Shown: one piece after another, positions 10,675-27,823 of the stretch
Numbering within the stretch: position 1 is the first letter of the stretch
How the letters are laid out: every line of letters begins with the position of its first letter
Source of the DNA: Verrucomicrobiia bacterium
GTDB taxonomy: Bacteria > Verrucomicrobiota > Verrucomicrobiia > Limisphaerales > UBA8199
Direction: 5' to 3'
Length of the DNA stretch: 58,518 nt
Assembly: GCA_035946615.1 (NCBI GenBank)
Contig: DASYZB010000087.1
Location: 1-58,518, forward strand
Notes under the pieces: model-generated
Seen by the model: only the letters and a program-made list of their open reading frames with translations
Databases searched by the model: none
Told to the model about the DNA's origin: nothing
Translations under genes and position numbers: made by a program

Positions 10675-10794
10675 AACGCTCCAAGCTAATGCTGCCGTGC
10701 CAATGGAGGCGAGAGAGAAAATCGCGCCTGAAACCGAAAGGCGTTGCGTTCGATGCGCGAAACGATATGATGCGGCCCAGGAAACAAACGACCC

Positions 10795-11451
10795 ATGAGC
10801 CAACCGACTCTTCAGAACGAAAAGAAGCGACTGACGGTGCTCTGGCAATACGAGGTGCTGGACACCGTTCCCGAGGAACTCTTCGATGATCTAACGGAAC
10901 TGGCGGCCCGCATTTGCGAGGCGCCCATCGCCCTGATCTCGCTGGTCGATGAAAAACGGCAGTGGTTTAAATCGAAGGTCGGAACCACTGTAACCGAAAC
11001 CTCGCGAGACGTTTCCTTCTGCGCCCACGCCATCCAGCAATCGGGTCTGTTTATCGTGCCGGATGCCAGCAAGGACCCCCGGTTCGCCCGCAACCCGTTG
11101 GTCACCTCAGACCCGAAAATCCGCTTTTATGCCGGCGCCCCATTGGTGACGCCAGACGGCTATGCGTTGGGGACCCTTTGCGTTATCGATACGGTTCCGC
11201 GCCAATTGCGGCCCGACCAGCAAGAGGGCCTGCGCATCCTTGCCCGGCACGTCGTTTCGCAGCTCGAATTGCGGCGGCGTTCACGCGAATTAGCCGACGT
11301 CCGGCAGGCAAACGCCAAATCGCAAAGCAAACTCGAGCAATTGCGCGCAGAATTAGCCGCCGCGCGCCTGGAATTGGCGAAGAGGAAATCCGGGAAATCT
11401 CCGCGCGCCAACGGGAAGGTGAGGCGTTCACTCAAGGCGCGCCGTCTCTAA
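10795..11451 (+). CDS. GAF-domain signalling protein
   Basis: A 218-residue soluble protein. Residues about 20-165 form a GAF domain of the class often placed in front of histidine kinases or diguanylate cyclases (RLTVLWQYEVLDTVPEELFDDL, then CEAPIALISLVDEKRQWFKS, RDVSFCAHAIQQ, FYAGAPLVTPDGYALGTLCVID). The C-terminus is a coiled coil (residues 165-205: LELRRRSRELADVRQAN...KLEQLRAELAAARLELAKR) ending in a basic tail. No kinase, GGDEF or helix-turn-helix domain is attached, so it is a stand-alone sensor or a truncated one; the ligand is unknown. It is followed after 3 nt by the broken iron-alcohol-dehydrogenase start. Confidence 0.85.
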   Translation: MSQPTLQNEKKRLTVLWQYEVLDTVPEELFDDLTELAARICEAPIALISLVDEKRQWFKSKVGTTVTETSRDVSFCAHAIQQSGLFIVPDASKDPRFARNPLVTSDPKIRFYAGAPLVTPDGYALGTLCVIDTVPRQLRPDQQEGLRILARHVVSQLELRRRSRELADVRQANAKSQSKLEQLRAELAAARLELAKRKSGKSPRANGKVRRSLKARRL

Positions 11452-11454
11452 GGC

Positions 11455-11628
11455 GTGGTGGGTCTAACAACTTTTTCCTTTCCCACAAGAACCCTGTTCG
11501 GTTCGGGTGCTCTGGAGGAGTTATCCGCCCGCCTCACCGGATTTGGTATTGGGCGGCCACTGGTGGTCACGGACGCCGGCTTGCTTGCTTCGGATGCTCA
11601 CAGGTCCTTGGCAAAGGCTTTGGGCGAA
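11455..11628 (+). pseudogene. iron-containing alcohol dehydrogenase, N-terminal fragment
   Basis: The frame starting at 11455 reads VGLTTFSFPTRTLFGSGALE, then RPLVVTDAGLLAS and SLAKALGEG. This is the N-terminal NAD-binding segment of group III iron-containing alcohol dehydrogenases (normally about 380 residues). Homology ends after about 58 codons; the frame continues with unrelated sequence and stops at 11733. From about 11629 another frame carries the end of a glutamine synthetase gene. This is direct evidence of a deletion joining two genes. The right boundary given is approximate. Confidence 0.75.
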
Positions 11629-11796
11629 GGAAACATTACGGGACGCAGCCGATTTGATGAGCGGTTCAAAACTCGCCCGCCCTGCATTCGGAGATGGGGT
11701 GGTGGATTTCTATGTCCATCACGCGCGGCTTGAGCTTGAGGCATTCAATAACGCCGTAACGGATTGGGAGAGATTCGCTATTTCGAGCGAATCTGA
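11629..11796 (+). pseudogene. glutamine synthetase family, C-terminal fragment with frameshift
   Basis: In the frame two bases on from the dehydrogenase fragment, codons read TLRDAADLMSGSKLARPAFG, then DGVVDFYVHHARLELEAFNN and AVTDWER. This is the C-terminal end of glutamine-synthetase-like ligases (gamma-glutamyl-polyamine synthetase/FluG type). After WER the frame must shift by one base to give RYFERI followed by TGA at 11794-11796, the usual family ending. Both the truncation (about 400 residues missing) and the frameshift mark it as dead. Iron alcohol dehydrogenase and this ligase class often lie together in amine/amino-alcohol catabolic clusters, which would explain how one deletion produced this scar. 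Confidence 0.75.
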
Positions 11797-11806
11797 GTGG
11801 GCGTGG

Positions 11807-12772
11807 TTATTGGGGCGCCAGCTCGGCCCGTTTATCGATGAACTGCGCCATAATGCTCACCGCAATCTCCATGACGCTTTTCGAGCGAATCTTGATTCCC
11901 ACGGGACAGGCCAGGCGCTCGAGTTGCTCCGGGCTGGCGATGTGTTCCTCGATGAAATGTTCGCGAATGGTTCTGGCTTTTCGGGCGCTTCCGATCATGC
12001 CTACAAAGAGGAACGGCTGATGAATCCAATCACGCAAGACCAGGGCATCATGGCGATGGCCTCGAGTGACTATCAACGCGAACGTGGGCACCGGCGGCAA
12101 TGGGACCTTCAGCAACTTCTCCCAGACATCGGTTTGCAGCGCGACTGCAGGTGGAAAAAATTGGCGGCTGGCCAGGGCCGGACGGTCATCGAAGACGGTC
12201 ACAGCAAAATCCAATTGCAAGGCGAGAGGGGCTACGGCTTGAGCGATATGGCCTGCGCCCGCTATCCATAGAGCGCCGGGTGGGGCGATGATTTCGCGGT
12301 AAAATGACTCCGCGATAGCTGTCGAACTCATGGTTTGACCAGAACGGCTGCGCGAGACCTCCGCCGGCAGCAATTGAATCGAAAAGTCATTGCGCACGCC
12401 CCATGCCAGAGGAGTGCGCCGTTGCGCCAGGTCGCGCCAAAAGGATTCACCGGCCCTTTGGGCATTGGGTAGAATCACTCCTTGCACTTTCCCGCCGCAG
12501 ATCAAGCCGTCATCCCAACCGAAATCGTGGTCGAGCAGGAGGTCGAAAGTCGAGGGCCGGTCTGTGCGCAGGGCTTTGATTGCGCGGTGCTGGATTTCGG
12601 CTTCGAGACAGCCGCCGCCCAGGGTGCCGGTGATACGGCCATCGGCATAAAAGAGCGCTTTGGCTCCCACCTTTTGCGGGCTCGACCCCTTCACCCCGCA
12701 AATGATGCCCAGAGTGACTGGCTCCGCGACGCGGGCCGCCTCTGCGAGGGCCTCAAAAACGGGATTGTTCAT
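11807..12772 (-). CDS. XdhC-family molybdenum cofactor chaperone/insertase
   Basis: From ATG at 12772 the product has 321 residues in the usual two parts. The N-terminal XdhC/CoxI domain starts NPVFEALAEAARVAEPVTLG and carries SSPQKVGAKALFYADGRITG, then GGGCLEAEI. The C-terminal Rossmann domain has LWIAGAGHIAQAVAPLA and GMIGSARKARTI. XdhC proteins handle Moco for xanthine-dehydrogenase-type enzymes and help sulfurate it. No xdhAB gene is in the window, but moaD and moaE at 47.2-47.8 kb show that Moco is made. The stop lies 10 nt from the end of the convergent glutamine synthetase remnant. The upstream extension to 12877 lacks homology. Confidence 0.88.
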   Translation of the reverse strand: MNNPVFEALAEAARVAEPVTLGIICGVKGSSPQKVGAKALFYADGRITGTLGGGCLEAEIQHRAIKALRTDRPSTFDLLLDHDFGWDDGLICGGKVQGVILPNAQRAGESFWRDLAQRRTPLAWGVRNDFSIQLLPAEVSRSRSGQTMSSTAIAESFYREIIAPPGALWIAGAGHIAQAVAPLALQLDFAVTVFDDRPALASRQFFPPAVALQTDVWEKLLKVPLPPVPTFALIVTRGHRHDALVLRDWIHQPFLFVGMIGSARKARTIREHFIEEHIASPEQLERLACPVGIKIRSKSVMEIAVSIMAQFIDKRAELAPQ

Positions 12773-12812
12773 AAGTGAGCCGGCCAAGCCGAAGCGGCGG
12801 GTCAGCAATGCC

Positions 12813-12983
12813 TTACCGGGTGCTGATGAGGTAAAGGATACAGGCCAGGATGGCCGATGCAAACAGTCCGGCCACAATTGCCCACTGCAGAATCAGTCTT
12901 CGCTTGCGTCGCAGGTTCCTGCCGCCCATCCCAGGCAGCAGATAAAACCGCTCTTTTTCTTTCGGCTTACCAAACAAGGCCAT
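12813..12983 (-). CDS. small membrane protein, unknown function
   Basis: A 56-residue product from ATG at 12983 (MALFGKPKEKERFYLLPGMG). A basic, soluble first half (GRNLRRKRRLILQW) is followed by one hydrophobic helix (AIVAGLFASAILACILYLI). The positive-inside pattern suggests a single-pass inner-membrane protein with the N-terminus in the cytoplasm. It sits between xdhC and ribE on the same strand. I do not recognise a named family. The regular FGKPKEKERFYLLPGMGG motif and good placement between genes support it being real, but its shortness keeps confidence moderate. Confidence 0.5.
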   Translation of the reverse strand: MALFGKPKEKERFYLLPGMGGRNLRRKRRLILQWAIVAGLFASAILACILYLISTR

Positions 12984-13024
12984 AAACCTGAGGATCGGCA
13001 AAGTGAGCTACCCGGGTGCGGCAG

Positions 13025-13642
13025 TCAAGCTGAAGAACTTTGGCGCGCGGACACGAATCGTTCGACGTACTTGCCAATGAGGTCTGCTTCGAGGTTGACC
13101 GCATCGCCCACCTTGCGTTCGCGCAGCGCGGTGACCTCGTAGGTATGCGGAATGATCCAAATCCGGAAGCCCTTGTCGAGGATGCCTGCCACGGTAAGGC
13201 TGATGCCATCAACGGCAATCGAGCCTTTGGGGACGACATAGCGCATTACCTCAGGCGGCGCCGCGATGTCCAGCACGTGGTCCTGCCCAGCCCGTTCCCA
13301 GCGCGTTATTGTTCCCACTCCGTCGATGTGGCCGGTGACAAAGTGGCCGCCCAGATTGCCATCTGCGCGCAGGGGCCGTTCGAGGTTGACCAGGGCCCCC
13401 GGCTTGGCGAACTGCAGGTTGGTGCGTTTCCAGGTTTCCTGAAGCAGATCAAACCGGGCCAGCTTTTGCGCGGCGCGGGAAGCGACTTTCACGGCGGTCA
13501 GGCAGCAGCCGTTGATGGCCAGGCTGCCCCCGAGCTTTAACCCGCGCCCGCATACGCGAGTTCGCACCGTCAGCTCGATGGATTTTTCACCTGGCTTGAT
13601 GCGTTCGATCTTGCCGGTTTCTTCCACAATGCCTGTAAACAT
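13025..13642 (-). CDS. ribE: riboflavin synthase, alpha subunit
   Basis: A 205-residue protein with the two tandem lumazine-binding halves of riboflavin synthase, which converts two molecules of 6,7-dimethyl-8-ribityllumazine to riboflavin. The first half starts with the invariant MFTGIVEETGKI and contains GGSLAINGCCLTAV. The linker is NLERPLRADGNLGGHFVTGH. The second half contains KGSIAVDGISLTVA and ends LIGKYVERF. The length matches the family. No other riboflavin gene is adjacent, and I saw no FMN riboswitch upstream. Confidence 0.95.
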   Translation of the reverse strand: MFTGIVEETGKIERIKPGEKSIELTVRTRVCGRGLKLGGSLAINGCCLTAVKVASRAAQKLARFDLLQETWKRTNLQFAKPGALVNLERPLRADGNLGGHFVTGHIDGVGTITRWERAGQDHVLDIAAPPEVMRYVVPKGSIAVDGISLTVAGILDKGFRIWIIPHTYEVTALRERKVGDAVNLEADLIGKYVERFVSARQSSSA

Positions 13643-13731
13643 GAGCGCGGAGTACGCGGATTACTGCCCGAAAGAAAGGAAAAACTTGACCTGGGTTACG
13701 GACTTTACCGTGCCCTATCGAGCAGGAAGTT

Positions 13732-14628
13732 TCACGCCGAGGCAGTGGGACCGCTGCGGAGGCTGGAGCGAAACTCGCTTGGGGCCATGCCGACATGCTG
13801 TTTGAAAACGCTATTGAACCGCGGGATGGAGCCGAAACCGGCCGCAAACACCACCTCGGAAATCCGCCGGGAAGGGTCCACCAGCAGTGTCTTGGCCTTT
13901 TCAACCCGCACCCGGGCGATGTATTCGGTGAGAGTCAGCCCGGTGACTTTCTTGAAGAGCTTGCAAAAATAGAAACGGCTGACATGAACGTGATCGACTA
14001 CCTGGGCCAACGTAATTGGCTCCTCGACATGGGCCTGCACGAACTCCTTGGCGTTCGTCACCGCATCCGGTTCACATTCCGATGAGGCAATCGCCTGTTT
14101 GCTGGCGAAGTCAGAGAGATATTGCGAGAAGACTTCCAATAATTGGAGGACGGCTTGAAATCGGTCGGCTGGGAGGACTGGAGTTTCAAAGTAGGACTTG
14201 CGCACCTTTTGAACCCATTCTGTGTCGGGCCCATCGCCCAGCATCTTGAGCACCAGCAGAAAGTCCCGCTCGGTCGGTTCGCGCCGGAACACCTGGCCCC
14301 CGAGAAGTGTGGCGACGTGCCTTTTGCCGACCAGAACCGGCGCAGCGACAACCGTCAGCCCGGCGTAGCAATGGATCTGCACCGGAGTCAGTTTGCGCGC
14401 GACCCGTTGCTGAACCCCGCGTTCGTTCTCGTTGCAGGCGGCGCACCCTGCGGAGGTCGAGCCCGCCAGCGAGCAGAAGCGGTTGCCCATCGCGGCAAAA
14501 CGATGCAGTTGAGCATCGCCGTCCGGCGGGGCCACCATGAGCGAGACGCCCGTGGCTTTGCGAAAAGCCGCCTCGAAATATTGAATCACGGGCAGCTTCG
14601 CCAGGTCCTCGAAGTCCAGAGGCTTCAT
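13732..14628 (-). CDS. AraC-family regulator with PocR sensory domain
   Basis: A 298-residue transcription factor. Residues about 10-170 are a PocR ligand-binding domain with its cysteine pattern (FCSLAGSTSAGCAACNENE, then QIHCYAGLTVVAAPVLV and LGGQVFR). Residues about 190-290 form an AraC/XylS DNA-binding domain with two helix-turn-helix units: EPITLAQVVDHVHVSRFYFC followed by KLFKKVTGLTLTEY, and ISEVVFAAGFGSIPRFNSVF followed by KQHVGMAPSEFR. PocR domains sense small hydrocarbon derivatives or other metabolites. It starts downstream of the respiratory cluster on the same strand and could regulate that cluster or the nearby dehydrogenase scar; neither is shown. Confidence 0.9.
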   Translation of the reverse strand: MKPLDFEDLAKLPVIQYFEAAFRKATGVSLMVAPPDGDAQLHRFAAMGNRFCSLAGSTSAGCAACNENERGVQQRVARKLTPVQIHCYAGLTVVAAPVLVGKRHVATLLGGQVFRREPTERDFLLVLKMLGDGPDTEWVQKVRKSYFETPVLPADRFQAVLQLLEVFSQYLSDFASKQAIASSECEPDAVTNAKEFVQAHVEEPITLAQVVDHVHVSRFYFCKLFKKVTGLTLTEYIARVRVEKAKTLLVDPSRRISEVVFAAGFGSIPRFNSVFKQHVGMAPSEFRSSLRSGPTASA

Positions 14629-14701
14629 TAATGCCTAACATTCCTCTAATAAGAGAGTTGTGACAAGGAACATTTCACGAAGCTGCGCAGCCATGTCCAA
14701 A

Positions 14702-14729
14702 GCGGCGGGAGCGTTGCGCTTGCCGCCGC
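14702..14729. terminator. GC-rich hairpin downstream of the respiratory cluster
   Basis: GCGGCGG (14702-14708) pairs with CCGCCGC (14723-14729), and the loop contains a further AGCG-TTG-CGCT stem. It lies 59 nt beyond the stop of the hexaheme cytochrome gene, the last gene of the minus-strand cluster. It could terminate that transcript or be a palindromic repeat; no U-tract follows. Confidence 0.4.
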
Positions 14730-14787
14730 ATTTCCAAGTACGCGCCTTCACGCTGGCTGGCGAGGAGAAGGCGCGCAATCCGTTGTT

Positions 14788-16179
14788 CTAGAAATCGAGC
14801 TTTTCGCCTTTGGGTGTGAGGCTGTTGAGAAAGGCGACCAAGTCATTGAGTTCGCCTTCAGCAATCTTTCCCCGCCAGGGCGGCATGTAGAGCGGGGGCG
14901 CCGGCTTGTTGGGGTCCAGGGCGGGGATTTCGCGCTGGCCGTCCAGGATGCGCTTTTTCAATTCGTCCTTGGTATAACCTTCGGAGACGAACTTCAGGCC
15001 GGGGACTTGTTGAGCCGTCTTGGCGTTTGGATTGGGAACGCCGCCCTGACCGTTCTGGCCATGACAGCCGGCGCAGCCGTATTTTTTAAAGACGGCTTTG
15101 CCGCGGTCCAGAGGCGTCATCAAAGCGGGAATATTCAGGAATCCAATGACATTCGTGTCGCTGATAGAGAGGAGGAACTCGGTTAATGCCCGGGTTTCCT
15201 GGTCAGTGAAATTGAATTGAGGCATCAGCGAGCCCGGAGAAAGGGCGGTGGGGCTTTTGAAATGGGCGATAATCCATTGCGCATCGCGACGCTGGCCGAC
15301 CTTATCGAGGGCCGGCCCGACAACGCCGCCTTTGCCGCCAAGACTATGGCAGCCCAGGCAGCCCTTTTCGGCAAAGAGGCGGCGTCCGGCCTGCGGCCCG
15401 GGGATGGTCTTCATGGAGACATAATAGGCGCTCAAGGGTTCGTCGGTGAAGCTCAGGACGTAAAGGGTCAGCGCCTCCAGCTCGGCATCACTGGCCTGAA
15501 TGGGGGGCATGGCGGAGCCGGGAGTAACCGCCGCCGGGTCTTTGAAATGTTTCATCAACCACTCAGGGCTGCGGCTGGCTCCCACTTTGTCCAACTCGGG
15601 GCCAATGACGCCGCCGGCGCCCTGGAGTTTATGGCAGCCGATACAGCCGGAGCGCTCGAAGACCTCGCGGCCCTGGGCGAGTTTGGGGGCATCGGGCACA
15701 TCGGTGGGCAGATGGCATTTACCGCAAGCCGATTGGATGTATTTCATCGCGAGCATTGGTCGGTCCCAATGTTCGACTTCTCCATGAGCGGCGTCGCGGG
15801 TGGTGGCGCGGCCCTGGCCCTGGTGACAGATGGTGCAGCCGAATTTGTTGAAGGGGTGGCGGTCGTGGTTGGGATGATAAGCCAAGGGCTCGGGCATGCC
15901 GGCGTAGCTTGGGTCCTCGACGGCGACATGGCAACTGGTGCAGCGGTCCACCCGTTCGGGATCGTTTAACAAAATCTGGCGCACCTCGATGGGGAGCCGG
16001 GTGGCCTCGGAGCGTTGCTCTGGCGTGGTGGCGCGCGCCAGCTCCTGCTTATTGTACTTGGCCTGCCATTCTTTCCATTCGCGGAACTGATCTTTATAGA
16101 ATGCGACAATGACCAGGCTGCCGATAATCAAGCCCAGCAGGGTGAACCAAGGGTAAAGCTTGCGGAGGGAAGAGTCCAT
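14788..16179 (-). CDS. membrane-anchored hexaheme cytochrome c
   Basis: A 463-residue protein with one N-terminal membrane helix (residues 10-28) and six CXXCH heme sites: CTSCH (Cys80), CTICH (Cys115), CGKCH (Cys152), CIGCH (Cys179), CLGCH (Cys274) and CAGCH (Cys369). The last three belong to class-I-like domains, and two of them are clear internal duplicates (GCIGCHKLQGAGGVIGPELD versus GCLGCHSLGGKGGVVGPALD, each ending in a LYVLS/EFLLS helix). Axial Met candidates are in GSAMPP and GSLMPQ. It follows cytochrome b after 5 nt, so it probably replaces cytochrome c1 as the electron exit of a bc-type complex facing the periplasm. Its length and heme number are unlike canonical c1. Confidence 0.9.
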   Translation of the reverse strand: MDSSLRKLYPWFTLLGLIIGSLVIVAFYKDQFREWKEWQAKYNKQELARATTPEQRSEATRLPIEVRQILLNDPERVDRCTSCHVAVEDPSYAGMPEPLAYHPNHDRHPFNKFGCTICHQGQGRATTRDAAHGEVEHWDRPMLAMKYIQSACGKCHLPTDVPDAPKLAQGREVFERSGCIGCHKLQGAGGVIGPELDKVGASRSPEWLMKHFKDPAAVTPGSAMPPIQASDAELEALTLYVLSFTDEPLSAYYVSMKTIPGPQAGRRLFAEKGCLGCHSLGGKGGVVGPALDKVGQRRDAQWIIAHFKSPTALSPGSLMPQFNFTDQETRALTEFLLSISDTNVIGFLNIPALMTPLDRGKAVFKKYGCAGCHGQNGQGGVPNPNAKTAQQVPGLKFVSEGYTKDELKKRILDGQREIPALDPNKPAPPLYMPPWRGKIAEGELNDLVAFLNSLTPKGEKLDF

Positions 16180-16184
16180 TTGGG

Positions 16185-17459
16185 CTAGTGAGAAGTTTCC
16201 TCGATATGGAGCGGTTTCCAGGGCAACTGGAAAGACCAGTTAGGCCCCCGAAAGGCGGTTCCGATGACCGTCAAAATGACGGCCACGCTGAGGCAAAGGC
16301 TGAAGAGGGTCAGAGCCACTTTGCGCTCGCCCGAAAACCAGACGCCCACGCCCCGGCGCTTGCGGTCGATGTATGGCAAGACAACCAGCGCGGTAACCAC
16401 CAACCCGGGTACGACGACTCCTCCCCAAAAGGCGGAGTAAGCCACCAATTCCTGGAGGCCCAGGAAGTACCATGGGGCCTTGGCCGGATTGGGCGGATGG
16501 ACCGGGTTGGCGATTTGTTCGAGAGGCGCGTTCCAGCAAATTGCCAGAAGCAAGACCACGGCGATGGTGATCATCAACAATAGAATCTCACGGAAGATAA
16601 GGTTCGGCCAGGTGAACACTTCGTCCTCGGGCAGGATTCCCACGGCCGGGGTTGTCCCACGGGCCAGTTCCATCAACCCGTAGGTTTTGGCGGAAGGCAA
16701 TTGGGCGGCAGCAAATTCCTCCTGTGTAATTTGCGGCTCGGCTGGATGCGCCAGGCCGCCGTCTTTGCGCACGCGCCACAGATGGACAGCCACCAGGCCC
16801 AGCGCGACCAGAGGCAAAACGATCACGTGCAGGACATAAAAGCGGATGAGGGCTGACTCGCCCACGATGTGGCCGCCCAGGAAAAGGAATTTAAGTTTTT
16901 GGCCAACGAGCGGGGCGTAACCGGCGATGCTGGTACCCACGGTGATGGCCCAATAGGCAAGCTGGTCCCAAGGCAGCAGGTAACCGGTAAAGGACAACGC
17001 GAGGGTCAGCAGGAATAAGCTGACACCGATGACCCAGTTGAACTCACGCGGTGGTTTGTAGGCTGCGGTATAAAATGCGCGGCACATGTGAAGCACAACA
17101 AACAGGACCATCAGATGGGCCGCCCAGCGGTGCATGTTGCGCAGGACCTGGCCGGCGGTGACCACAAACTCCAGGTCCTTCATGTTTTGATAGGCGTAGT
17201 CCGTGGCCGGCACGTAATAAAACATCAGCAGCACCCCGGTCGCGATCAGGATGAGGAACAGGTACAGGGTGATCAGACCCAGGCCCAAGGTTGTGCGGAA
17301 TTGCAATGTGCGCCGGTTAACCTTGGCGGGCTGCATATGGAGCAAAAAGCTGGATATGGCGGCCTGCGCGCGTTCGAGGTTGCTCTCGGGCAGGCCAACG
17401 CGGAAGACCGAGCGGCCAACCCGGGTCAGGCGAAAGGTGTTCCAAAGATTCTTGAGCAC
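16185..17459 (-). CDS. cytochrome b of a bc-type quinol:cytochrome c oxidoreductase
   Basis: Starting from GTG at 17459, one nucleotide after the Rieske stop, the product has 424 residues. Its eight or so membrane helices cover both the b6-like and subunit-IV-like halves. Heme-binding His pairs are visible in [20 protein letters not shown] and [16 protein letters not shown]...VHLWRV. The quinol-site motif is [14 protein letters not shown] in place of PEWY, as in several non-proteobacterial bc complexes. Translational coupling to the Rieske gene and the following hexaheme gene mark an operon. An ATG at 17522 would overlap the Rieske gene by 62 nt and add residues lacking homology, so the GTG is preferred. 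Confidence 0.9.
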
Positions 17460-17460
17460 G

Positions 17461-17925
17461 TTACACCACCAGGTACTTGTCAGCCTTGACCGGTTGAGAG
17501 GTATCGATAACCAGGTAGCCATCCCGGCTCAGAGAAAGTTGGAACCAGGCCAAGGAGGCGGGAGCAGGGCCGCTGATGACCGCGCCGCTTTGGTCGAAGA
17601 CGCTGCCATGGCAGGGGCAATGGAACCCGTTGCCAGCGAGGTTAACCGTGCAACCCAGGTGCGTGCAGACCGCCGAAGCGACCCGGAAACTGTTGCCTTT
17701 GCGGAACAGGAACACGCGCAGATTGGGCATAAAGGTCGGTCCCTCGGGATAATCGTCCGGCTTTAGGGCCTTGAAGCGGCGGCTGGGTTCGTACAGGACA
17801 TTGGGGACCAGAAATCGGCCAGCGGCGGCCAGGGAAGCCCCGGCCGCAAATAGGGCCGAACACCAGCCGAGCGACAGGCTCAGAAAGGCGCGGCGTTGAA
17901 GTTTCTCGTTAGGCGTTTGAATCAT
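17461..17925 (-). CDS. Rieske iron-sulfur protein
   Basis: About 154 residues from ATG at 17925 ([20 protein letters not shown]); a second ATG two codons upstream (17931) is possible. The N-terminus has a twin-Arg followed by a hydrophobic helix, as in Tat-inserted Rieske subunits. The [2Fe-2S] ligands are in CTHLGCTV and CPCHGSVFD. The protein takes electrons from quinol bound to cytochrome b and passes them to the cytochrome c subunit. Cytochrome b follows directly. The whole 120-nt gap upstream, towards the flavoprotein gene, is taken up by a copy of the dispersed 115-bp repeat, and no clear Shine-Dalgarno sequence is left. Confidence 0.92.
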
Positions 17926-17928
17926 AAA

Positions 17929-18040
17929 CATGGGGCCGTGGCATAGACTGCCGGGAGGCACCCCTCTCCCCTTCGGAAGGGGGAAGGGAGAAGCAAGGCA
18001 GATTCAAGATGTAGTTCATGTTAGAGACTCTTCAGTAAAC
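17929..18040 (+). repeat. dispersed repeat of about 115 bp, copy B
   Basis: Shares with copies A and C the series GGGCCGTGGCATAGAC, CCCCTCTCCCCTTCGGAAGG, GGCAGATT, AAGATGTAGTTCATGTTAG and CAGTAAAC. It is the shortest copy, lacking one CGACCCTCTCC unit. It fills the gap between the flavoprotein stop (18046) and the Rieske start inside an otherwise tightly spaced operon. Confidence 0.85.
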
Positions 18041-18045
18041 GGAAA

Positions 18046-19992
18046 CTAGGCGGCCACCCACTCGACCTTTTCCATGGTGATCGCGCCGGTGGGACAGCGC
18101 AGGGCGCAAAGACCGCACCGGATGCAGCGCGTTTCGTCTTTGATGATTCCCCCCTGCTGGCCTGGTTGCGGGAGGTGACCGTATCGGGCCAGGATTGCAG
18201 ATTGGAGTTTTTCATCGGCGCGAATGGAGGCGACATCAACCAGGCGCAAACAACTTTCCGGGCAGATATCGGCGCAGCCGCCGCAGAGAATGCATTTGTC
18301 GCCGTTAAAAACCGGGCTAACGTGACACTTCAAACAACGCAATGCCTGGGCGGAGGCATTCGTTTGAGGGTAAACCTGCTCGACTTCGGCAATGCCAATG
18401 CGGCGGTCCAGAGGCAGAGTCGGCGGAGTGCGGCGGACGATTTTTTCGTATCCGACGGCCATCCGGTAGGTCTGGGTTGGAAAGGATGTGACACGCGCTT
18501 TGCGGGGGGGTTCGGGGGCCCTTCCGGTGAGGAATTTGGCAATCGAGCGGGCGGCGCGCTGGCCTTCGGCGACTGCAGAGATAATGATACGCGGACCAAA
18601 AGCCAGGTCGCCGCCGGCAAAGATGTCGGGACGGGAGGTGGCCAGAGACTGGGGGTCGGTTTGGACCAGGCCCCGGGCCGACACCTTGAGGTTGTCTTCG
18701 GGACGAACCCAGGAGAGGTCGGGGGCTTGGCCGATGGCCAGGACCACCGTATCGCACGGGACGGTCTCCTCGCTCCCCTCGATGAATTGCGGGTTGAATC
18801 GCCGGTTTTCATCAAACACACGGCTGCAGCGAACCAACTCGATGCCAGTGACCTTGCCCTCCTGGCCCACGATGCGTTTGGGACCGTAGCGCGTGTGCAG
18901 GCGGATGCCTTCTCTCTCGGCTTCTTCAATCTCCTCGCGCGCAGCGGGAATCTCGTTGAGGTTCTCGAGACAAAACATGTGGACTTCGGGCACGCCCTTG
19001 CGAATGGCCTCGCGGGCGACATCCAATGCCAGGCGCACCTCGTCTGGCGCTTCGGGTTCGCGGGCCGTTAATTGTTCGAGCGCGGCGGCGGCGTGGTGGA
19101 GCGCGGCGCGCAGTTCGGCCTCGCTCATGCCGGCCAACTGTTCGGCCTGGCGAACCACCGAGCGTGCCACATCGAAGGCGACATTGCCGCCGCCAATGAC
19201 CACCACCTTGCGCCCCAGTGACACGCGGAAACCCAAGTTGATGTTGAGCAGAAACTCGATCGCCCGGAGCACCCCGTCCAATTGCACGCCTTCGATGGCC
19301 ATTTCGCGGCTCTTATGGGCGCCGATTCCCAGAAACACAGCCTCGTAACCCTGTCCCTTGAGGTCGGAGAGGCTAAAGTCGCGGCCCAGGCGGCGGTTAT
19401 TGCGAATCTCGACACCCAGGGATTGGATGGCCTCGATTTCGGCCTGGATAATCTCGCGCGGCAGGCGGTATTCGGGAACTCCCAGCACCAGCATGCCCCC
19501 GGAGACATCCTGGGCCTCGAAAACCGTCGGGCAAAATCCCATCAGCGCCAACTCATGCGCGCAGGACAACCCGGCCGGCCCCGCCCCGATGACCGCGACC
19601 TTGCGCCCTGCGCCCAGGCGCTCGCGGTCCTTCTGCTTCAATTGCGGATAGACCCGGCCCAGATCGAAATCGGACGACTCGACCCCGAATTTTTCACAAA
19701 TAAACCTTTTGAGGGCGCGGATGGAAACGGCGGCATCCAAGGCTCCGCGCCGGCACTTGGCTTCGCAGGGTGCGGCGCAAACCCGCCCGCAGATCGAGGC
19801 GAACGGGTTGGGCGCCCGGGCTATCAGGTAAGCATCCTCGTAGCGTCCTTCGGCAATGGCCTGCACGTAGCCGCCGGAGTCCGTCCGGACCGGACAACCT
19901 TCGCGGCAGAGCACCTGCCGCGCGAAGTAGCTCACGTCCGGCAGTTCGACGGCATAACTGGCTTGCATGGCGCCAAAAAGATGATCCGCCAA
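18046..19992 (-). CDS. FAD/iron-sulfur oxidoreductase, glutamate-synthase-small-subunit type with ferredoxin tail
   Basis: A 648-residue soluble protein. The N-terminal domain has the cysteines of a GltD-like [4Fe-4S] region (CREGCP at 29-34, then CGRVCAAPCEAKC at 68-80). Two nucleotide-binding folds follow: VAVIGAGPAGLSCAHELAL (FAD) and VVVIGGGNVAFDVARSVV (NAD(P)H). GGDLAFGPR closes the flavin domain. The C-terminus carries CLKCHVSP and two ferredoxin motifs, CILCGGCADICPESC and CIRCGLCALRCPTG, for further [4Fe-4S] clusters. GltD-type modules oxidise or reduce NAD(P)H and are partners of many complexes. Placement between a cytochrome c gene and the Rieske/cytochrome b genes suggests a link between NAD(P)H or ferredoxin and the bc complex. 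No glutamate synthase large subunit is present. Confidence 0.88.
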   Translation of the reverse strand: MADHLFGAMQASYAVELPDVSYFARQVLCREGCPVRTDSGGYVQAIAEGRYEDAYLIARAPNPFASICGRVCAAPCEAKCRRGALDAAVSIRALKRFICEKFGVESSDFDLGRVYPQLKQKDRERLGAGRKVAVIGAGPAGLSCAHELALMGFCPTVFEAQDVSGGMLVLGVPEYRLPREIIQAEIEAIQSLGVEIRNNRRLGRDFSLSDLKGQGYEAVFLGIGAHKSREMAIEGVQLDGVLRAIEFLLNINLGFRVSLGRKVVVIGGGNVAFDVARSVVRQAEQLAGMSEAELRAALHHAAAALEQLTAREPEAPDEVRLALDVAREAIRKGVPEVHMFCLENLNEIPAAREEIEEAEREGIRLHTRYGPKRIVGQEGKVTGIELVRCSRVFDENRRFNPQFIEGSEETVPCDTVVLAIGQAPDLSWVRPEDNLKVSARGLVQTDPQSLATSRPDIFAGGDLAFGPRIIISAVAEGQRAARSIAKFLTGRAPEPPRKARVTSFPTQTYRMAVGYEKIVRRTPPTLPLDRRIGIAEVEQVYPQTNASAQALRCLKCHVSPVFNGDKCILCGGCADICPESCLRLVDVASIRADEKLQSAILARYGHLPQPGQQGGIIKDETRCIRCGLCALRCPTGAITMEKVEWVAA

Positions 19993-19997
19993 ATGCC

Positions 19998-20462
19998 TTA
20001 CTTATCGTATTTGTCGTGAAGTTCCTTGAACTTGGTCTCCGCGGCCGCCTTTTCCTCCGGCGTCGCCTTGGCCAGCTTCTCATCGACCATGGCCTTTTTG
20101 CGGAGGCTGGAGTCATAGACCAGGAACTCGTAAATCTTTTTGCCTTCTCCGGCGCTGATGCCGCTGCCCGGTTTGTGCATCATCCGTTTGATGTAGCGCG
20201 ACCATTCATCAGGCAGCGCGTAATCCGAGTTGATGGGGCGGCTCAATTTATGGCACTGCGAGCATTTCTGCGAAAACACCTGATAATTGTCCTGAATCGC
20301 ATCGGGATATTTGGAGACATCAACGGTCGCGGGACCTTTTTCGAACCGCTCGATGCGCGCCTTGGTTTGAGCATCCAACGGTTCGTCTGCGCGCGCGGCG
20401 AACGTGGTGAGGGCAGCGACAGCGCCCATGAGCAATGAAGTAAGTACAACTTTTGTTTTCAT
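19998..20462 (-). CDS. periplasmic monoheme cytochrome c
   Basis: A 154-residue protein with a clean signal peptide (KVVLTSLLMGAVAALTTFAARA) and a single heme site (SQKCSQCHKLSRP) around residue 70. Later Met candidates (KRMMHKPGSG) could be axial ligands. The C-terminus is highly charged and helical (EEKAAAETKFKELHDKYDK). It precedes the flavoprotein gene by 5 nt and is separated from the porin gene upstream by copy C of the dispersed repeat. It could be the soluble electron carrier of the cluster. No named cytochrome family is recognised beyond this. Confidence 0.85.
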   Translation of the reverse strand: MKTKVVLTSLLMGAVAALTTFAARADEPLDAQTKARIERFEKGPATVDVSKYPDAIQDNYQVFSQKCSQCHKLSRPINSDYALPDEWSRYIKRMMHKPGSGISAGEGKKIYEFLVYDSSLRKKAMVDEKLAKATPEEKAAAETKFKELHDKYDK

Positions 20463-20466
20463 AGTA

Positions 20467-20592
20467 TAGATTGGGCAGTGGCATAGACTACAGCGAGGGG
20501 CCCCTCTGCCCGATCCTCTCCCCTTCGGAAGTGGAGAGGGAGAAGCATCGGCAGATTAACGGTGTAGTTCATGTTAGGGACTCGTCAGTAAG
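20467..20592 (+). repeat. dispersed repeat of about 115 bp, copy C
   Basis: The most regular copy: GGCAGTGGCATAGAC, then CCTCTCC-c-CTT-CGG-AAG-t-GGAGAGG (7 bp plus 3 bp of stem with one mismatch), CATCGGCAGATTAA, TGTAGTTCATGTTAGGGACT and CAGTAA. It occupies nearly all of the gap between the porin stop (20606) and the cytochrome c start (20462) on the minus strand. Confidence 0.85.
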
Positions 20593-20605
20593 CTTTTGTT
20601 TTTGG

Positions 20606-21994
20606 TTAAAACCCGTAGGAGACTTGGAACAACAGTTCGTTCGATGGGAAAAATGCCGAGCCGGGGCCGGTGCTGTGGAGCCATTCGTAATCGCCTTCGA
20701 AGAGCAGGGTGTTGGAGAAGTAATAAACGAACCCGGCGGTGTAGCGGTCGGCTTTGGTCGCCGGCGCCAGGCCGTCGTTGGACTCGTCATAGCGGCCCAC
20801 CAGTTCGAGGTTGTTGATGAGGGGCCAGTCCCGGTTCAAGCCGGCGAGCTTGTAACTGCCCTGAATCCACCAGCCTCTGGGGTGGATGGTGCCCATGTCC
20901 GTGGTATCCGCCCAGGTGTTGATATACTCGCCTTTGACCTCGACGTTCGGGGTGATGTGCAGGGCGGCATCAACCACCGCGGCTGACCATTGGTTGCCCA
21001 GGTCATTCCACTCGCCCGTCTGGCCCGAAACCCCCAACTCGAGGTCATAATGCGGTTTCAACGGGAAGAACCAGCCAAGCCGCCCGCCACCGCTGGGGTC
21101 GGAATGCAAATTGCCCAGAGCCGAAAAGGTCGTGCCCGGCAAGCCAAAGCCGTATTGCCTCGGCACTGTGGTGGCTTGGGAGAGAACGCCCACGTTCCCA
21201 CCCAGGTCCAGCGAGCCAGAGTTGCCGGTCCCATCGACTGACGACGGACCATTCACGCCATAGGCCGAATAGGTAAGCATTTGGCCGTTGTCCCCGATGG
21301 GAACAGCCCCGCGCCCCTGGATGCCGATGCCATTGCCAGGAAGCAAACCGCGAGGCATGGGGTTATCGGGAATTTTATTGAGCCAGCCGGCGCTGCGTTC
21401 GCTGTAGGTGCCTAGCGGCAGGAGCATGTTGCCCGCCACGACTGTCAGATAGTCGTTGAAGAGATAATCCAGGGTGGCAAAGCTCAGATCAAAACCGTAT
21501 GACGTGCCGGCGGAGGCTGGCGCATTATTGGCCAGGGTGAAATCAAATCCCGCTTCAAACAGGATATTGTCATTGGCCCGAAACAGGAAGATGGGCGCGA
21601 AATCGGCGAAGGCAAAGGCGCTGTGCTGGCCCGGCATGCGTCCGAAGATGGTTTCGGCGTCGCCAACGACCTGGAATTGGTGAGTGGCAGGCGGCCCTGG
21701 CATGGGAGCGACCGGCGCGGCGGCCTGGGCCTTGGCGACCGCCTCGACTTGCTGTGCGGCATTGGTGGCCACGGTCTGGGTTTCGCCCAATTGCTGCTTT
21801 AACTGGTCGATTTGCTGCTTGTCTTGCTGATGGGTTGCCTGGTCTTGTTCGTGGGTTTGTTCGAGGCGTTGCACTTTTTTGCTTAATTCATCGACCATGT
21901 TTTTGAGGTCGTTGAAATCGTTGCTGCTTACCTGCGCCCAGCCGGCTGAGGGCAGAACCACTGCCAATGCCAGCATCAAGGAAAGAGGTTTCAT
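20606..21994 (-). CDS. outer-membrane porin
   Basis: A 462-residue protein with a signal peptide (MKPLSLMLALAVVLPSAGWA), a coiled-coil stretch (residues 27-75: LKNMVDELSKKVQRLEQTHE and a Gln-rich continuation) and then a long beta-barrel domain with alternating strands (FLFRANDNILFEAGFDFTLA, DYLTVVAGNMLLPLGTYSER, GRYDESNDG). It ends in an aromatic Phe (LLFQVSYGF), as outer-membrane barrels do. The coiled coil may anchor it to peptidoglycan or trimerise it. It is embedded between two cytochrome c genes of the respiratory cluster, which raises the question of whether it passes a substrate or an electron carrier for that chain. Confidence 0.85.
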   Translation of the reverse strand: MKPLSLMLALAVVLPSAGWAQVSSNDFNDLKNMVDELSKKVQRLEQTHEQDQATHQQDKQQIDQLKQQLGETQTVATNAAQQVEAVAKAQAAAPVAPMPGPPATHQFQVVGDAETIFGRMPGQHSAFAFADFAPIFLFRANDNILFEAGFDFTLANNAPASAGTSYGFDLSFATLDYLFNDYLTVVAGNMLLPLGTYSERSAGWLNKIPDNPMPRGLLPGNGIGIQGRGAVPIGDNGQMLTYSAYGVNGPSSVDGTGNSGSLDLGGNVGVLSQATTVPRQYGFGLPGTTFSALGNLHSDPSGGGRLGWFFPLKPHYDLELGVSGQTGEWNDLGNQWSAAVVDAALHITPNVEVKGEYINTWADTTDMGTIHPRGWWIQGSYKLAGLNRDWPLINNLELVGRYDESNDGLAPATKADRYTAGFVYYFSNTLLFEGDYEWLHSTGPGSAFFPSNELLFQVSYGF

Positions 21995-22018
21995 AAGGTG
22001 TTGGTCTTTCAGATTGGG

Positions 22019-22360
22019 TTAGCTGCCGCTGTCTTCCTGCAGGTACTTGAGTATCTTTTTGGCTTGTGACGCCGGGAGATTGGCGCGCACCCGCATGTGA
22101 GTCATGAGGGTCTTCCACTGGGAAGCGGTGAACTCGGTGGCGTAACGTTCCGGATGGCAACGGTTGCAGTTGATGCTGTAGAGCTCGGCGCCGGTGAGCT
22201 TTGAGACCTTCTTCGCCTTCTTCTGCGCTTTGGCGGGTTTGTCTGCCTTGGTATCCGCCGCCACTGCGCAGAAGACCGATGCCCCATAGAGCGTCGCCGC
22301 CGACAACGCGAGAATCGCCCCGGGGCGCCGCGCCCATTTGAATAAACTGAGTCGCTTCAT
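22019..22360 (-). CDS. small monoheme cytochrome c
   Basis: From ATG at 22360 (MKRLSLFKWARRPG) the product has 113 residues. A signal peptide or anchor (AILALSAATLYGASVFCAVAA) is followed by a Lys-rich linker (DTKADKPAKAQKKAKKVSKL) and one heme site, SINCNRCHPERYATEF. The end (MRVRANLPASQAKKILKYLQ) resembles the last helix of small photosynthesis- or methanol-type cytochromes. It is the first gene of the cluster; the porin follows after 24 nt. Longer starts up to 22513 run through sequence with no signal peptide and are rejected. Confidence 0.82.
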   Translation of the reverse strand: MKRLSLFKWARRPGAILALSAATLYGASVFCAVAADTKADKPAKAQKKAKKVSKLTGAELYSINCNRCHPERYATEFTASQWKTLMTHMRVRANLPASQAKKILKYLQEDSGS

Positions 22361-25556: not shown

Positions 25557-26123
25557 TTATTGCAGATTGGGAATGTAACAGCCGATGGATTTGGTCGCGC
25601 GCACTTGGATCGAGTGGTGAGCCAGTATCGCGTTTAGGGCCTCCTCCAAGTCATGGCGGGTGGGCGCTGGCCGTTCCCGTCCGATCTCTGCGAAGCGGTC
25701 GTCGATTCGGCCATGATACAGCAGCTCGCCCTTCATGCCAAAGACGGCGGCCGAAGGCACGGTATCCGTCCTGGCGCGGCGGGCCCAAAGCTGGTGGGGG
25801 TCCAGGAGCGTAGGGAGAGTCAACTTGTATTCGAGATCATGCCTCCGGATGCTGTCCGCCGTTTCCTCCGGGTCAGAATGCACGAGCCAAAACGCCACGC
25901 CCCGTGGGGCGTACTGCTGGCGCAAATGCGAAATGGTGGGGCAGTAGCGATTGGCCAGCGGACAATCATTGCTCACGAAAATCAGGACTCGGGCGACCAG
26001 GTTGGTTGGCAACAACGGATCAGCCGGGCGAGGCCATACCGAGATTACACTATGACGGTTCAAACAGCCTGGGAAGAGGCAACCAAGCGCGGCCAAAGCC
26101 AGAAGCGGAAAGGCTCGCCTCAT
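25557..26123 (-). CDS. thioredoxin-fold (redoxin) lipoprotein
   Basis: A 188-residue protein with a lipoprotein-like signal (FPLLALAALGCLFPGCLNR, lipobox FPGC). The redoxin fold begins at ARVLIFVSNDCPLANRYCPT; the Cys-x6-Cys spacing replaces the classical CxxC. SHLRQQYAPRGVAFWLVHSD, TDTVPSAAVFGMKGELLYHG and the final RHDLEEALNAIL are family features of the AhpC/TSA-like proteins found beside copper-type monooxygenases in this phylum and in Planctomycetes. The ATG overlaps the stop of the upstream monooxygenase gene by 4 nt (ATGA), so the two are translationally coupled and probably act together in the periplasm, perhaps in copper or disulfide handling. Confidence 0.82.
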   Translation of the reverse strand: MRRAFPLLALAALGCLFPGCLNRHSVISVWPRPADPLLPTNLVARVLIFVSNDCPLANRYCPTISHLRQQYAPRGVAFWLVHSDPEETADSIRRHDLEYKLTLPTLLDPHQLWARRARTDTVPSAAVFGMKGELLYHGRIDDRFAEIGRERPAPTRHDLEEALNAILAHHSIQVRATKSIGCYIPNLQ

Positions 26124-27823
26124 TTGGTGGCCGCCTCAGGTGCGGCGCGAAGACGCTCGATTCGCTGCAAGGTTTCACGCGCCAGAGCGTCGGTGGGGTC
26201 CAGCAGAAGGGCCTGCCGGATTTTTTTCTCCGCCTGATCGAGGTCGCCCAGGTCCAGAAACAAGAAAGCGAGGTTGCCAAAAGCGCGCGCGTTTCTTGGG
26301 TTGAGGCGAATAGCCGCCTCCAGCTCAGTGCGGGCGCGGGTCAGGAGGTTTTGGGTGCGGTAGATGACTCCCCTGTAATAATGAGGCTGGTCGTACTTGG
26401 GGTCGTCGGCGCAGGCCTCTCTGAGGGTCTCAAGGGCTTCGGTCGTTTGGCCGGCAGCCCATTGTGCGAAACCCAGTTCGGTGCGCGCGCGAGCATCGCG
26501 CGGGTTGCGGGCCAGCCGAAACTCGGCGTAACGTCGAATGAGCTGTTGGTTTTTCTGGTTGTAAGCTTCCTTGAGCCGCGCGCCGTCGCCCGGATTATTG
26601 AGCCGGACTTGGAACCAAAGCTCGCCCATTTCATCGGTTGTCTGCGGACCGTAGAGAACCTCTTTGGGGGGCTGGTTTGGGTTTCTGGGGTTCGCGGTTG
26701 AATTGTCATAGGTAAAGTGCATCCCAAGCTCTGTCCCGGCGGGCAAATGCACTGGATGGGCATAGCGATAGTCGCCTTGCCAGTTGAAGTCCCAGTCGGG
26801 GATAGTCAGCAGCGGCTGAATGCTGCCGTCGGTTCGACGCGCGAAGCCCTCGAGTCGTTTGCCAAGGTAATGGGCATGGGGCAAAACCGAAAGAACCTCG
26901 ACATCGACCGGCAGGACGAATTGGTCTTCCAAAACCCAGGCGTTATTGCCGGCAGGGATATCGATGTTGAGCGAAGTCAGGACAAGGATCATGGTTGTAT
27001 TGGTGGGGGGCGTATCTGTGAAGAAGAGCCCGACCTGCGCCTGGATCGTCTCAGGTTTTCCCGTCGGCCTCAAATGCGCCTGCACCACCAGGTCCTCGCC
27101 AGGCTTAAGTGTCCAGCCATACCCTGGCGGCTCGGAGGACGGCATCTTGCCCGGCTGATAGCCCAGAAAATAGCCATCAGGGGTTCGGACGCTGTTGGGC
27201 AAATTCATTCCGTCAAACCCGGGTTGGCCATCCGCGCCATCGAAGCTCCCCGCCTGCCCTGATGTGTCCACTTTTACAAAAGCATGGTGAACGATCCGAA
27301 GATTGTCCGGACGAAACTCGACCGCGCGCACATACCGGGGAACCTTGAGGGGAACTGGGATAACAAAGTTTCGGTAAACGTCGCGCCCATCGGCGGCAAG
27401 CGTGAATGGGCGCGGCATCCGGACAACCAAATCGGGCTTGCCCAATTGCCAACCTCCCACAAATCGAGGAAGCGGCGGTAGCTGCGACGGCGCGCCCTCC
27501 GGCGCACCGGCTTGGAACCAGCGCGCAAACAATTCGACCTGCTCCCCGGTTAGCCGGCGGTCTCCCACAAATTCTCCCCTCGCGCCGGCTGGCAGCCACG
27601 GAGGCATGTAACGGCTCCGGGTCACCTGCGCGATTTGCCTCGCCCGCTTCTCGACATCACGAAAGCTCAAGAGCGCAAAGGGTCCCGATTCACCTGGCCG
27701 ATGGCAGATCGAACAATGCGCGAACACAATCGGAGCGATATCCTTATTAAAAGTGACATCCGTGTTGGAGGCGAGCACTGCCTCGCCAACCAGAACCAAT
27801 GATGCAACCGTAGCCAGCTTCAC
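26120..27823 (-). CDS. cytochrome c / copper-monooxygenase-like / TPR multidomain protein
   Basis: From GTG at 27823 (VKLATVASLVLVGEAVLAS signal) the product has 567 residues. First comes a heme domain (FAHCSICHRPGESGPFALLS, one CXXCH). Next is a region like the ascorbate-dependent copper type II monooxygenases (PHM/DBH fold), with copper-type His motifs IVHHAFVKV, VVQAHLRPTG, LPHAHYLGK and MHFTYDNS and a candidate Met ligand in TTDEMGELWF. The last 130 residues are TPR repeats (ARTELGFAQWAAGQTTEALE, ARAFGNLAFLFLDLGDLDQA). Such triple fusions are known in Planctomycetes and Verrucomicrobia, with unknown substrates. An in-frame ATG at 28027 would add 68 residues with no signal peptide at the end, so the GTG start is preferred. 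Confidence 0.8.
   Translation of the reverse strand: MKLATVASLVLVGEAVLASNTDVTFNKDIAPIVFAHCSICHRPGESGPFALLSFRDVEKRARQIAQVTRSRYMPPWLPAGARGEFVGDRRLTGEQVELFARWFQAGAPEGAPSQLPPLPRFVGGWQLGKPDLVVRMPRPFTLAADGRDVYRNFVIPVPLKVPRYVRAVEFRPDNLRIVHHAFVKVDTSGQAGSFDGADGQPGFDGMNLPNSVRTPDGYFLGYQPGKMPSSEPPGYGWTLKPGEDLVVQAHLRPTGKPETIQAQVGLFFTDTPPTNTTMILVLTSLNIDIPAGNNAWVLEDQFVLPVDVEVLSVLPHAHYLGKRLEGFARRTDGSIQPLLTIPDWDFNWQGDYRYAHPVHLPAGTELGMHFTYDNSTANPRNPNQPPKEVLYGPQTTDEMGELWFQVRLNNPGDGARLKEAYNQKNQQLIRRYAEFRLARNPRDARARTELGFAQWAAGQTTEALETLREACADDPKYDQPHYYRGVIYRTQNLLTRARTELEAAIRLNPRNARAFGNLAFLFLDLGDLDQAEKKIRQALLLDPTDALARETLQRIERLRAAPEAATK

What the first reader, a model, noticed from the sequence alone, without database searches (positions are those of the whole stretch)
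14788..22360. Respiratory cluster joining a GltD-type flavoprotein to a Rieske/cytochrome b complex, with a porin
Seven co-oriented genes encode two periplasmic monoheme cytochromes, a porin, an FAD/NAD(P)H/FeS protein with ferredoxin clusters, Rieske, cytochrome b and a hexaheme cytochrome. NAD(P)H-oxidoreductase modules associated with bc complexes have been described in anammox planctomycetes; a version with its own porin and two extra cytochromes could be a distinct electron-transfer system, possibly coupling quinol oxidation to NAD(P) or ferredoxin reduction, or passing electrons towards the outer membrane. Function is inferred from gene order and motifs.
Basis: partly seen in the sequence, partly recalled or inferred. 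Interest (0 to 1): 0.8.

Follow-up and report, generated by a model that had tools for sequence, protein, structure and literature searches.

The report
NAD(P)H-linked Rieske/cytochrome b respiratory complex
A verrucomicrobial gene cluster encodes a respiratory complex in which a pyridine-nucleotide flavoprotein is paired with a Rieske/cytochrome b core, a compact relative of puzzling complexes known from anammox bacteria that are thought to make NAD(P)H from quinol.

Summary
In detail: seven co-oriented genes (monoheme cytochrome, porin, monoheme cytochrome, GltD-like flavoprotein with C-terminal ferredoxin clusters, Rieske, cytochrome b, hexaheme cytochrome) lie where stated, and a conserved PocR-AraC regulator follows them. 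The flavoprotein is not a stray glutamate synthase. In all 13 other window-type genomes found, Rieske follows the flavoprotein, and cytochrome b and the hexaheme cytochrome follow wherever the contig goes on (12 of 12; two loci have inserted genes). Related flavoprotein-Rieske-cytochrome b clusters recur elsewhere in Verrucomicrobiota and in 14 of 20 stretches from a second phylum. One genome with two such clusters keeps a matched pair in each. The Rieske's best solved relatives are the two anammox Rieskes of the NAD(P)-oxidoreductase complexes. Best mechanism: quinol oxidation split between a high-potential branch (Rieske, hexaheme, monoheme c, acceptor) and a low-potential branch (b hemes, Fe-S chain, FAD, NAD(P)+). 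This is by analogy; direction, quinone and acceptor are untested. The porin is accessory (9 of 14 window-type loci), although a porin-cytochrome-flavoprotein arrangement recurs in the second phylum. A conduit to the outside is not supported. New variant of a known, unproven kind.

The parts
22019..22360 (-). monoheme cytochrome c (A), probably exported; ORF opens at 22513, probable start 22360
   Evidence: one CXXCH; weak TorC C-terminal similarity; linked in 9 of 14 window-type loci
20606..21994 (-). outer-membrane porin (B): signal-like start, predicted long helix, beta-strand-rich part; weak Porin_O_P
   Evidence: AlphaFold model poor (mean pLDDT 38.4); 9 of 14 window-type loci
19998..20462 (-). 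monoheme cytochrome c (C), probable soluble electron carrier
   Evidence: CSQCH and conserved KRMM; 12 of 14 window-type loci; paralogue next to the genome's canonical Rieske/cytochrome b cluster
18046..19992 (-). FAD/NAD(P) flavoprotein with N-terminal DPYD-type Fe-S domain and C-terminal ferredoxin clusters (D)
   Evidence: 16 Cys invariant in 38 of 38 linked homologues aligned
17461..17961 (-). Rieske [2Fe-2S] protein (E), probable start 17931
   Evidence: CPCHGSVF motif
16185..17522 (-). cytochrome b with b6 and subunit-IV parts in one chain (F), probable start GTG 17459
   Evidence: in ORF numbering His62, Arg252-Lys253, no heme-cN Cys, APWY in place of PEWY
14788..16179 (-). hexaheme cytochrome c with an N-terminal hydrophobic anchor (G)
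   Evidence: six CXXCH, invariant in the seven sequences aligned; C-terminal domain 51% identical to the monoheme c of the genome's canonical cluster
13732..14628 (-). PocR-domain AraC-type regulator, conserved neighbour
   Evidence: Pfam PocR + HTH_18; linked in 10 of 14 window-type loci

Best explanation
The cluster encodes a quinol-oxidising Rieske/cytochrome b complex with a cytoplasmic NAD(P) oxidoreductase subunit. Quinol is oxidised at the positive-side site of cytochrome b. One electron goes through the Rieske cluster to the hexaheme cytochrome, on to the monoheme cytochrome(s) and then to a high-potential acceptor, most likely a terminal oxidase. The other goes through the two b hemes, possibly an extra heme at the dimer interface, and the chain of Fe-S clusters to FAD, where NAD(P)+ is reduced. 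The favourable branch thus pays for making reduced pyridine nucleotide. The porin and the first cytochrome are envelope accessories; the PocR-AraC protein probably controls expression. Shown: gene content, conserved linkage, shared ancestry of the pairs, conserved cofactor motifs. Inferred: complex formation, electron path, direction, quinone, acceptor, regulation.
For: Window-type loci: Rieske follows the flavoprotein in 13 of 13 others, cytochrome b and hexaheme in 12 of 12 with enough contig. Related clusters in other Verrucomicrobiota and in 14 of 20 stretches from a second phylum. Flavoprotein and cytochrome b identities rise and fall together (Spearman 0.79 over 24 Verrucomicrobiota loci, pairs not independent); G116 carries two linked clusters, each with its matched pair. 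Rieske best PDB hits are 9rk4 and 9rk3 (2e-20, 1e-17; next 2e-14), the anammox Rieskes of the NAD(P)-oxidoreductase complexes. The Rieske carries the potential-raising Ser (S/F, the pair reported for Kustd1480), while both own canonical Rieskes have Gly. 16 Cys invariant in 38 of 38 linked flavoproteins, enough for about four clusters, the number in the published models. His62 and Arg252-Lys253 resemble the residues proposed for the interfacial heme in Kustd1481. Three hexaheme domains have class I matches and conserved Met-Pro motifs, and the genome has six COX1-family matches.
Against: No biochemistry that I saw shows such a complex acting on NAD(P). His62, Arg-Lys and the Rieske Ser also occur in relatives without an adjacent flavoprotein (L094-L097; Ser in 11 of 16 unlinked rows), so they mark the wider clade, not the flavoprotein link. 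Window-type cytochrome b lacks the heme-cN cysteine, whereas the anammox models have heme cN. L094 and L095, close cytochrome b relatives, have no flavoprotein in the fetched stretch. L146 and L147 are linked but lack the Rieske Ser. The quinone type is unknown: a menA search found nothing. Complex I-family genes give the cell another route between quinone and NAD.
Confidence: 0.55

Rival explanations
1. The complex runs the other way: NAD(P)H donates to FAD, the Fe-S chain and cytochrome b, reducing quinone or, with quinol, the periplasmic cytochromes (an NAD(P)H dehydrogenase built on a Rieske/cytochrome b frame).
For: Same parts and wiring; the relatives (NfnL, GltD, DPYD) include enzymes that oxidise NADPH or work reversibly (recalled).
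Against: Complex I-family genes are present in the genome, so this route would waste energy; Hauser et al. argue likewise for Kuenenia. It gives no clear need for a Rieske branch.
Confidence: 0.2
2. An ordinary Q-cycle complex whose flavoprotein is a loosely attached, co-regulated ferredoxin/NADP oxidoreductase.
For: Close cytochrome b relatives have no flavoprotein nearby (L094, L095); positive-side quinol site and the four b-heme histidines are retained.
Against: The flavoprotein precedes Rieske in all window-type loci and co-diverges with cytochrome b; its eleven C-terminal cysteines are invariant in 38 of 38 linked rows.
Confidence: 0.15
3. A porin-cytochrome conduit that passes electrons through the outer membrane to an extracellular acceptor.
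For: A porin and two monoheme cytochromes in the cluster; the same set recurs in a second phylum (L139, L140).
Against: Known conduits use large MtrB-like barrels with multiheme proteins (passages); none found by PF11854 in this genome (which no control genome passes at cut-off either); porin missing from the fetched stretch in 5 of 14 window-type loci.
Confidence: 0.05

Closest known systems
Anammox Rieske/cytochrome b complexes Kustd1480-1485 and Kuste4569-4574 of Kuenenia stuttgartiensis (PMC12954380)
   Same: Rieske + b6-type cytochrome b + NAD(P) oxidoreductase with Fe-S chain + multiheme cytochrome c in one cluster; closest solved Rieske relatives
   Different: Here b6 and subunit IV are one chain, no heme-cN cysteine, hexaheme with class I domains, no HAO-like octaheme gene in the cluster, plus porin, two monoheme cytochromes and a PocR-AraC regulator
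Geobacter extHIJKLMNOPQS cluster (PMC5877670)
   Same: Phosphate-porin-like ExtI next to Rieske (ExtO), b-type cytochrome (ExtP/ExtQ) and multiheme cytochromes; ExtP is the best NCBIfam match of the cytochrome b
   Different: No flavoprotein listed in that cluster; ExtP, ExtQ and ExtS models all score below cut-off here
Octaheme b6/subunit IV operon of Nitrospina, Kuenenia and Methylomirabilis (PMC3578206)
   Same: Rieske, b6-type cytochrome b, multiheme c
   Different: Split cytochrome b and octaheme; similar separate clusters occur in G327, G273 and G116 (L034, L096, L097)
NfnL / GltD flavoproteins
   Same: DPYD-type Fe-S + FAD + NAD(P) domains
   Different: Extra C-terminal ferredoxin region; gene linked to Rieske/cytochrome b; no glutamate synthase large subunit among the cluster genes

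Membership tests
anammox-type NAD(P)-oxidoreductase Rieske/cytochrome b complex | NAD(P) oxidoreductase gene in the Rieske/cytochrome b cluster | tested here: met
anammox-type NAD(P)-oxidoreductase Rieske/cytochrome b complex | Rieske of the same lineage, with Ser near the cluster | tested here: met
   best PDB hits 9rk4, 9rk3; CPCHGSVF; Ser is shared by unlinked relatives
anammox-type NAD(P)-oxidoreductase Rieske/cytochrome b complex | multiheme cytochrome c in place of cytochrome f | tested here: met
   six CXXCH
anammox-type NAD(P)-oxidoreductase Rieske/cytochrome b complex | separate b6 and subunit IV, heme cN | tested here: not met
   single 445-codon chain, no Cys at the cN position
anammox-type NAD(P)-oxidoreductase Rieske/cytochrome b complex | interfacial heme-b site (His plus basic residues) | tested here: inconclusive
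   His62 and Arg252-Lys253 conserved, also in unlinked relatives; Kuenenia sequences not available
anammox-type NAD(P)-oxidoreductase Rieske/cytochrome b complex | produces NAD(P)H from quinol | not testable with these tools
   a proposal for Kuenenia too
glutamate synthase small subunit (GltD) | scores above the GltD equivalog cut-off and stands as a separate ~480 aa protein | tested here: not met
   TIGR01316 276 bits against 471.75; 648-codon ORF with C-terminal ferredoxin; GltD-size proteins elsewhere
Geobacter Ext cluster | ExtP/ExtQ/ExtS equivalog scores | tested here: not met
   270.2 of 290, 73.8 of 150, 66.1 of 100 bits
porin-cytochrome extracellular conduit | MtrB/PioB-type barrel with a multiheme partner | tested here: inconclusive
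   no PF11854 hit in the genome, but no control genome passed the cut-off either; cluster porin matches Porin_O_P weakly
canonical cytochrome bc1/b6f | negative-side quinone reduction (Q cycle) | not testable with these tools
   heme histidines kept, PEWY is APWY, cN Cys absent

The most novel reading that the evidence does not exclude
A widespread class of Rieske/cytochrome b complexes outside anammox bacteria, including one in this oxidase-bearing verrucomicrobial genome, bifurcates quinol electrons so that half go to a high-potential acceptor such as oxygen and half are driven uphill to NAD(P)H: reverse electron transport without reversed complex I.
Probability: 0.35. Interest if true: 0.85.

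Novelty: new variant of a known kind. Interest (0 to 1): 0.62.

Why it matters
The proposed NAD(P)H-making Rieske/cytochrome b complexes have been discussed for anammox bacteria, which are hard to grow and lack handy genetics (recalled). Related, simpler complexes in other phyla, with one cytochrome b gene and one hexaheme cytochrome, may give more tractable material, and the paired phylogeny suggests that the flavoprotein is a true subunit. If confirmed, it would show that the quinol bifurcation site can feed NAD(P)+ and not only quinone.

Tried and rejected
GltD as a separate enzyme: rejected. Rieske Ser and cytochrome b His/Arg-Lys as marks of the flavoprotein link: tested and rejected, since unlinked members of the clade have them too. 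C581 of the flavoprotein as a mark of linked proteins: not usable, because only one of the five controls (L019) reaches that region. Porin as a defining part: rejected (9 of 14; remnant next to a canonical cluster). Porin structure: AlphaFold model too poor (mean pLDDT 38.4) to search with. Quinone type: menA search empty, left open. undercounts distant flavoproteins (it scored at most three candidates per genome): clusters in family f75 and in G273 came up only through cytochrome b. The flavoprotein tree does not put all linked rows in one clade: three (L034 second copy, L146, L147) fall outside the 35-row clade, and several branches are long. The 20 stretches come from 19 of the 58 genomes with hits.

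Literature: PMC12954380 read in parts 1, 2, 4, 5, 6 of 7; PMC5877670, PMC3578206, PMC5317091, PMC2825233, PMC13053071, PMC6037941, PMC8862662 passages only; Dibrova 2013 not held; ten Brink 2013 not sought. No report of this cluster in Verrucomicrobiota was seen in the listings of searches; subscription journals are mostly missing from that library.
Full report
WHAT IS THERE. The seven genes named lie on the minus strand, transcribed from 22360 to 14788. Domain scans confirm the flavoprotein, Rieske, cytochrome b, hexaheme and (barely) the porin; the two monoheme cytochromes are recognised by their single CXXCH. The flavoprotein (648 codons) carries a DPYD-type Fe-S domain, an FAD/NAD(P) domain and C-terminal ferredoxin motifs. 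Cytochrome b holds b6 and subunit-IV parts in one chain. The hexaheme protein begins with a hydrophobic stretch and has six CXXCH, invariant in the seven sequences aligned. The next gene, a PocR-AraC regulator at 13732-14628, is also part of the unit (below).

OWN GENOME. The genome (5.6 Mb, 161 contigs) has five Rieske hits. Besides the window, C34 holds a canonical Rieske / cytochrome b (heme-cN Cys, PEWY) / monoheme c set without flavoprotein, preceded by a paralogue (61-63%) of the window's second monoheme cytochrome and by a short match (35 residues) to the porin's N-terminus. C58 holds a Rieske and a cytochrome b-c fusion next to oxidase genes. Six COX1-family matches, complex I 49-kDa-family matches on four contigs and three other Fer4_20 proteins of GltD size were found. 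So relatives of the second cytochrome and of the porin occur beside another kind of Rieske/cytochrome b complex, and the flavoprotein is not the cell's only GltD-like protein.

LINKAGE. Flavoprotein orthologues at 67-84% identity were found in 5 of 57 relatives besides the window's genome (6 of 58 with it), in 4 others of a 387-genome phylum sample (5 at that level with the own genome, 7 at the cut-off) and in 7 of 8 loci of a genome-collection scan. Window-type clusters are then known from 14 genomes (window, L012-L018, L027, L028, L029, L031, L032, L033). Rieske follows the flavoprotein in all 14; cytochrome b and the hexaheme cytochrome follow in 13 of 13 with enough contig, the window included. 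Two loci have inserted genes: L028 about 0.9 kb between flavoprotein and Rieske, L029 about 2 kb between Rieske and cytochrome b. Within the fetched stretches cytochrome C is present in 12, cytochrome A and porin in 9, the PocR regulator in 10; the two loci without cytochrome C (L029, L033) have another monoheme cytochrome directly before the flavoprotein.

A cytochrome b search in Verrucomicrobiota (18 of 288 genomes) uncovered further flavoprotein-linked types: heptaheme (L086-L093), decaheme (L034, L035) and, in G327, a second cluster with split cytochrome b and octaheme, like Kustd1480-1485 in layout. It also gave unlinked relatives: L094 and L095 (pentaheme), L096 and L097 (octaheme), and the more distant L098-L100. 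In the phylum of G443 (the genome of L019, a Syntrophorhabdaceae MAG, Thermodesulfobacteriota by NCBI), 58 of 247 genomes matched; of 20 stretches fetched, 14 are flavoprotein-linked (two of them, L146 and L147, in another order), 5 show no flavoprotein and 1 is cut. Two of the 14 (L139, L140) have porin, two monoheme cytochromes, flavoprotein, Rieske, cytochrome b and a tetraheme cytochrome.

SHARED ANCESTRY. In the flavoprotein tree (midpoint root) 35 of 38 linked rows form one clade (99/98) across both phyla, and the 14 window-type rows form a clade (100/99). In the cytochrome b tree the linked types group much as in the flavoprotein tree, within a clade (100/99) that also contains 10 unlinked rows; both own canonical proteins lie outside. 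Identities of the two proteins correlate (Spearman 0.79, 24 loci; pairs are not independent), and G116 carries two linked clusters whose flavoprotein and cytochrome b each match their own type. The two therefore seem to travel as a unit, which is hard to reconcile with an unrelated neighbour enzyme.

COFACTORS. Sixteen flavoprotein cysteines are invariant in 38 of 38 linked homologues (N-terminal five: C29, C33, C72, C76, C80; C-terminal eleven). That suffices for about four clusters, as in the published anammox models. Three of the five control proteins end before the C-terminal region and only L019 spans it, so no cysteine can be called specific to linked proteins. Arg520 and Arg552 are also invariant in the 38. 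Cytochrome b keeps four histidines at the heme-ligand positions (H131, H145, H232, H247) and a positive-side quinol motif changed from PEWY to APWY; it lacks the heme-cN cysteine. His62 and Arg252-Lys253 (ORF numbering; 21 lower with the probable start) resemble, by place and motif only, the residues proposed to hold an extra heme in Kustd1481 (His62, Arg266, Lys267); the equal number of the His is chance. They are present in the linked rows aligned and also in unlinked L094-L097, and absent from the canonical rows. The Rieske motif CPCHGSVF has the Ser reported to raise the potential: 34 of 36 linked rows have Ser (L146 and L147 have Ala); 11 of 16 unlinked rows have it, and the five lacking it are the canonical ones, both own paralogues included. 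These are marks of the clade, not of the link.

COMPARISON. The Rieske's best hits among solved structures are 9rk4 (2e-20) and 9rk3 (1e-17), ahead of b6f Rieskes (2e-14). Hauser et al. (PMC12954380) deposited these two, measured +303 and +335 mV for them and favour the earlier proposal of NAD(P)H production by bifurcation. The Geobacter Ext cluster (PMC5877670, passages) has a similar kind of porin with Rieske/cytochrome b genes; deleting the porin gene lowered selenite and tellurite reduction; no flavoprotein is listed there.

MECHANISM. By analogy, quinol oxidation sends one electron to Rieske, the hexaheme and the monoheme cytochromes, and the other by the b hemes and Fe-S clusters to FAD and NAD(P)+. 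The hexaheme's C-terminal domain resembles the monoheme c of the canonical cluster (51%), which suggests a similar downstream carrier, and oxidase genes are present, so oxygen is the likely end acceptor. The genes cannot show the direction, and the reverse reading stays open. The PocR domain is recalled as a sensor of small organic molecules; no call tested that.

VERDICT. Real, conserved and related to a known but unproven class; new in its compact layout, hosts and accessory genes. Interest 0.62.

Noticed in passing
G000:C34, locus L037 about 8060-10681: Second Rieske/cytochrome b cluster of the same genome, canonical, with a cytochrome C paralogue and a short remnant of the porin gene's start.
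   Followed up: partly
L034 (G327) 4246-18074: Two different flavoprotein-Rieske-cytochrome b-multiheme clusters back to back, one with split cytochrome b and octaheme.
   Followed up: partly
L033 1105-4475 and L018 5142-6425: NrfD-type membrane proteins lie near the cluster in loci without the porin, in L033 together with a tetraheme cytochrome; in L033 the NrfD part is fused to a cNMP-binding domain.
   Followed up: partly
L017 6204-8360 and L018 892-3384: Large multiheme proteins (11 and 13 CXXCH) fused to a cytochrome b561-type membrane domain near the cluster.
   Followed up: no
L029 5957-7857: Two genes inserted between Rieske and cytochrome b; one looks like a cysteine desulfurase (read by eye, not scanned), which would fit Fe-S supply.
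   Followed up: no
window 26120-28105: TPR-rich protein whose N-terminal part holds one CXXCH (CSICH), on the same strand a few kb upstream of the cluster; function not settled.
   Followed up: no
window 32464-38709: Two adjacent ORFs of about 1040 aa that look like RND-type transporters (recalled, not scanned).
   Followed up: no
L146, L147: A further flavoprotein-cytochrome b-Rieske arrangement with split cytochrome b, Ala in place of the Rieske Ser and several multiheme cytochromes.
   Followed up: no
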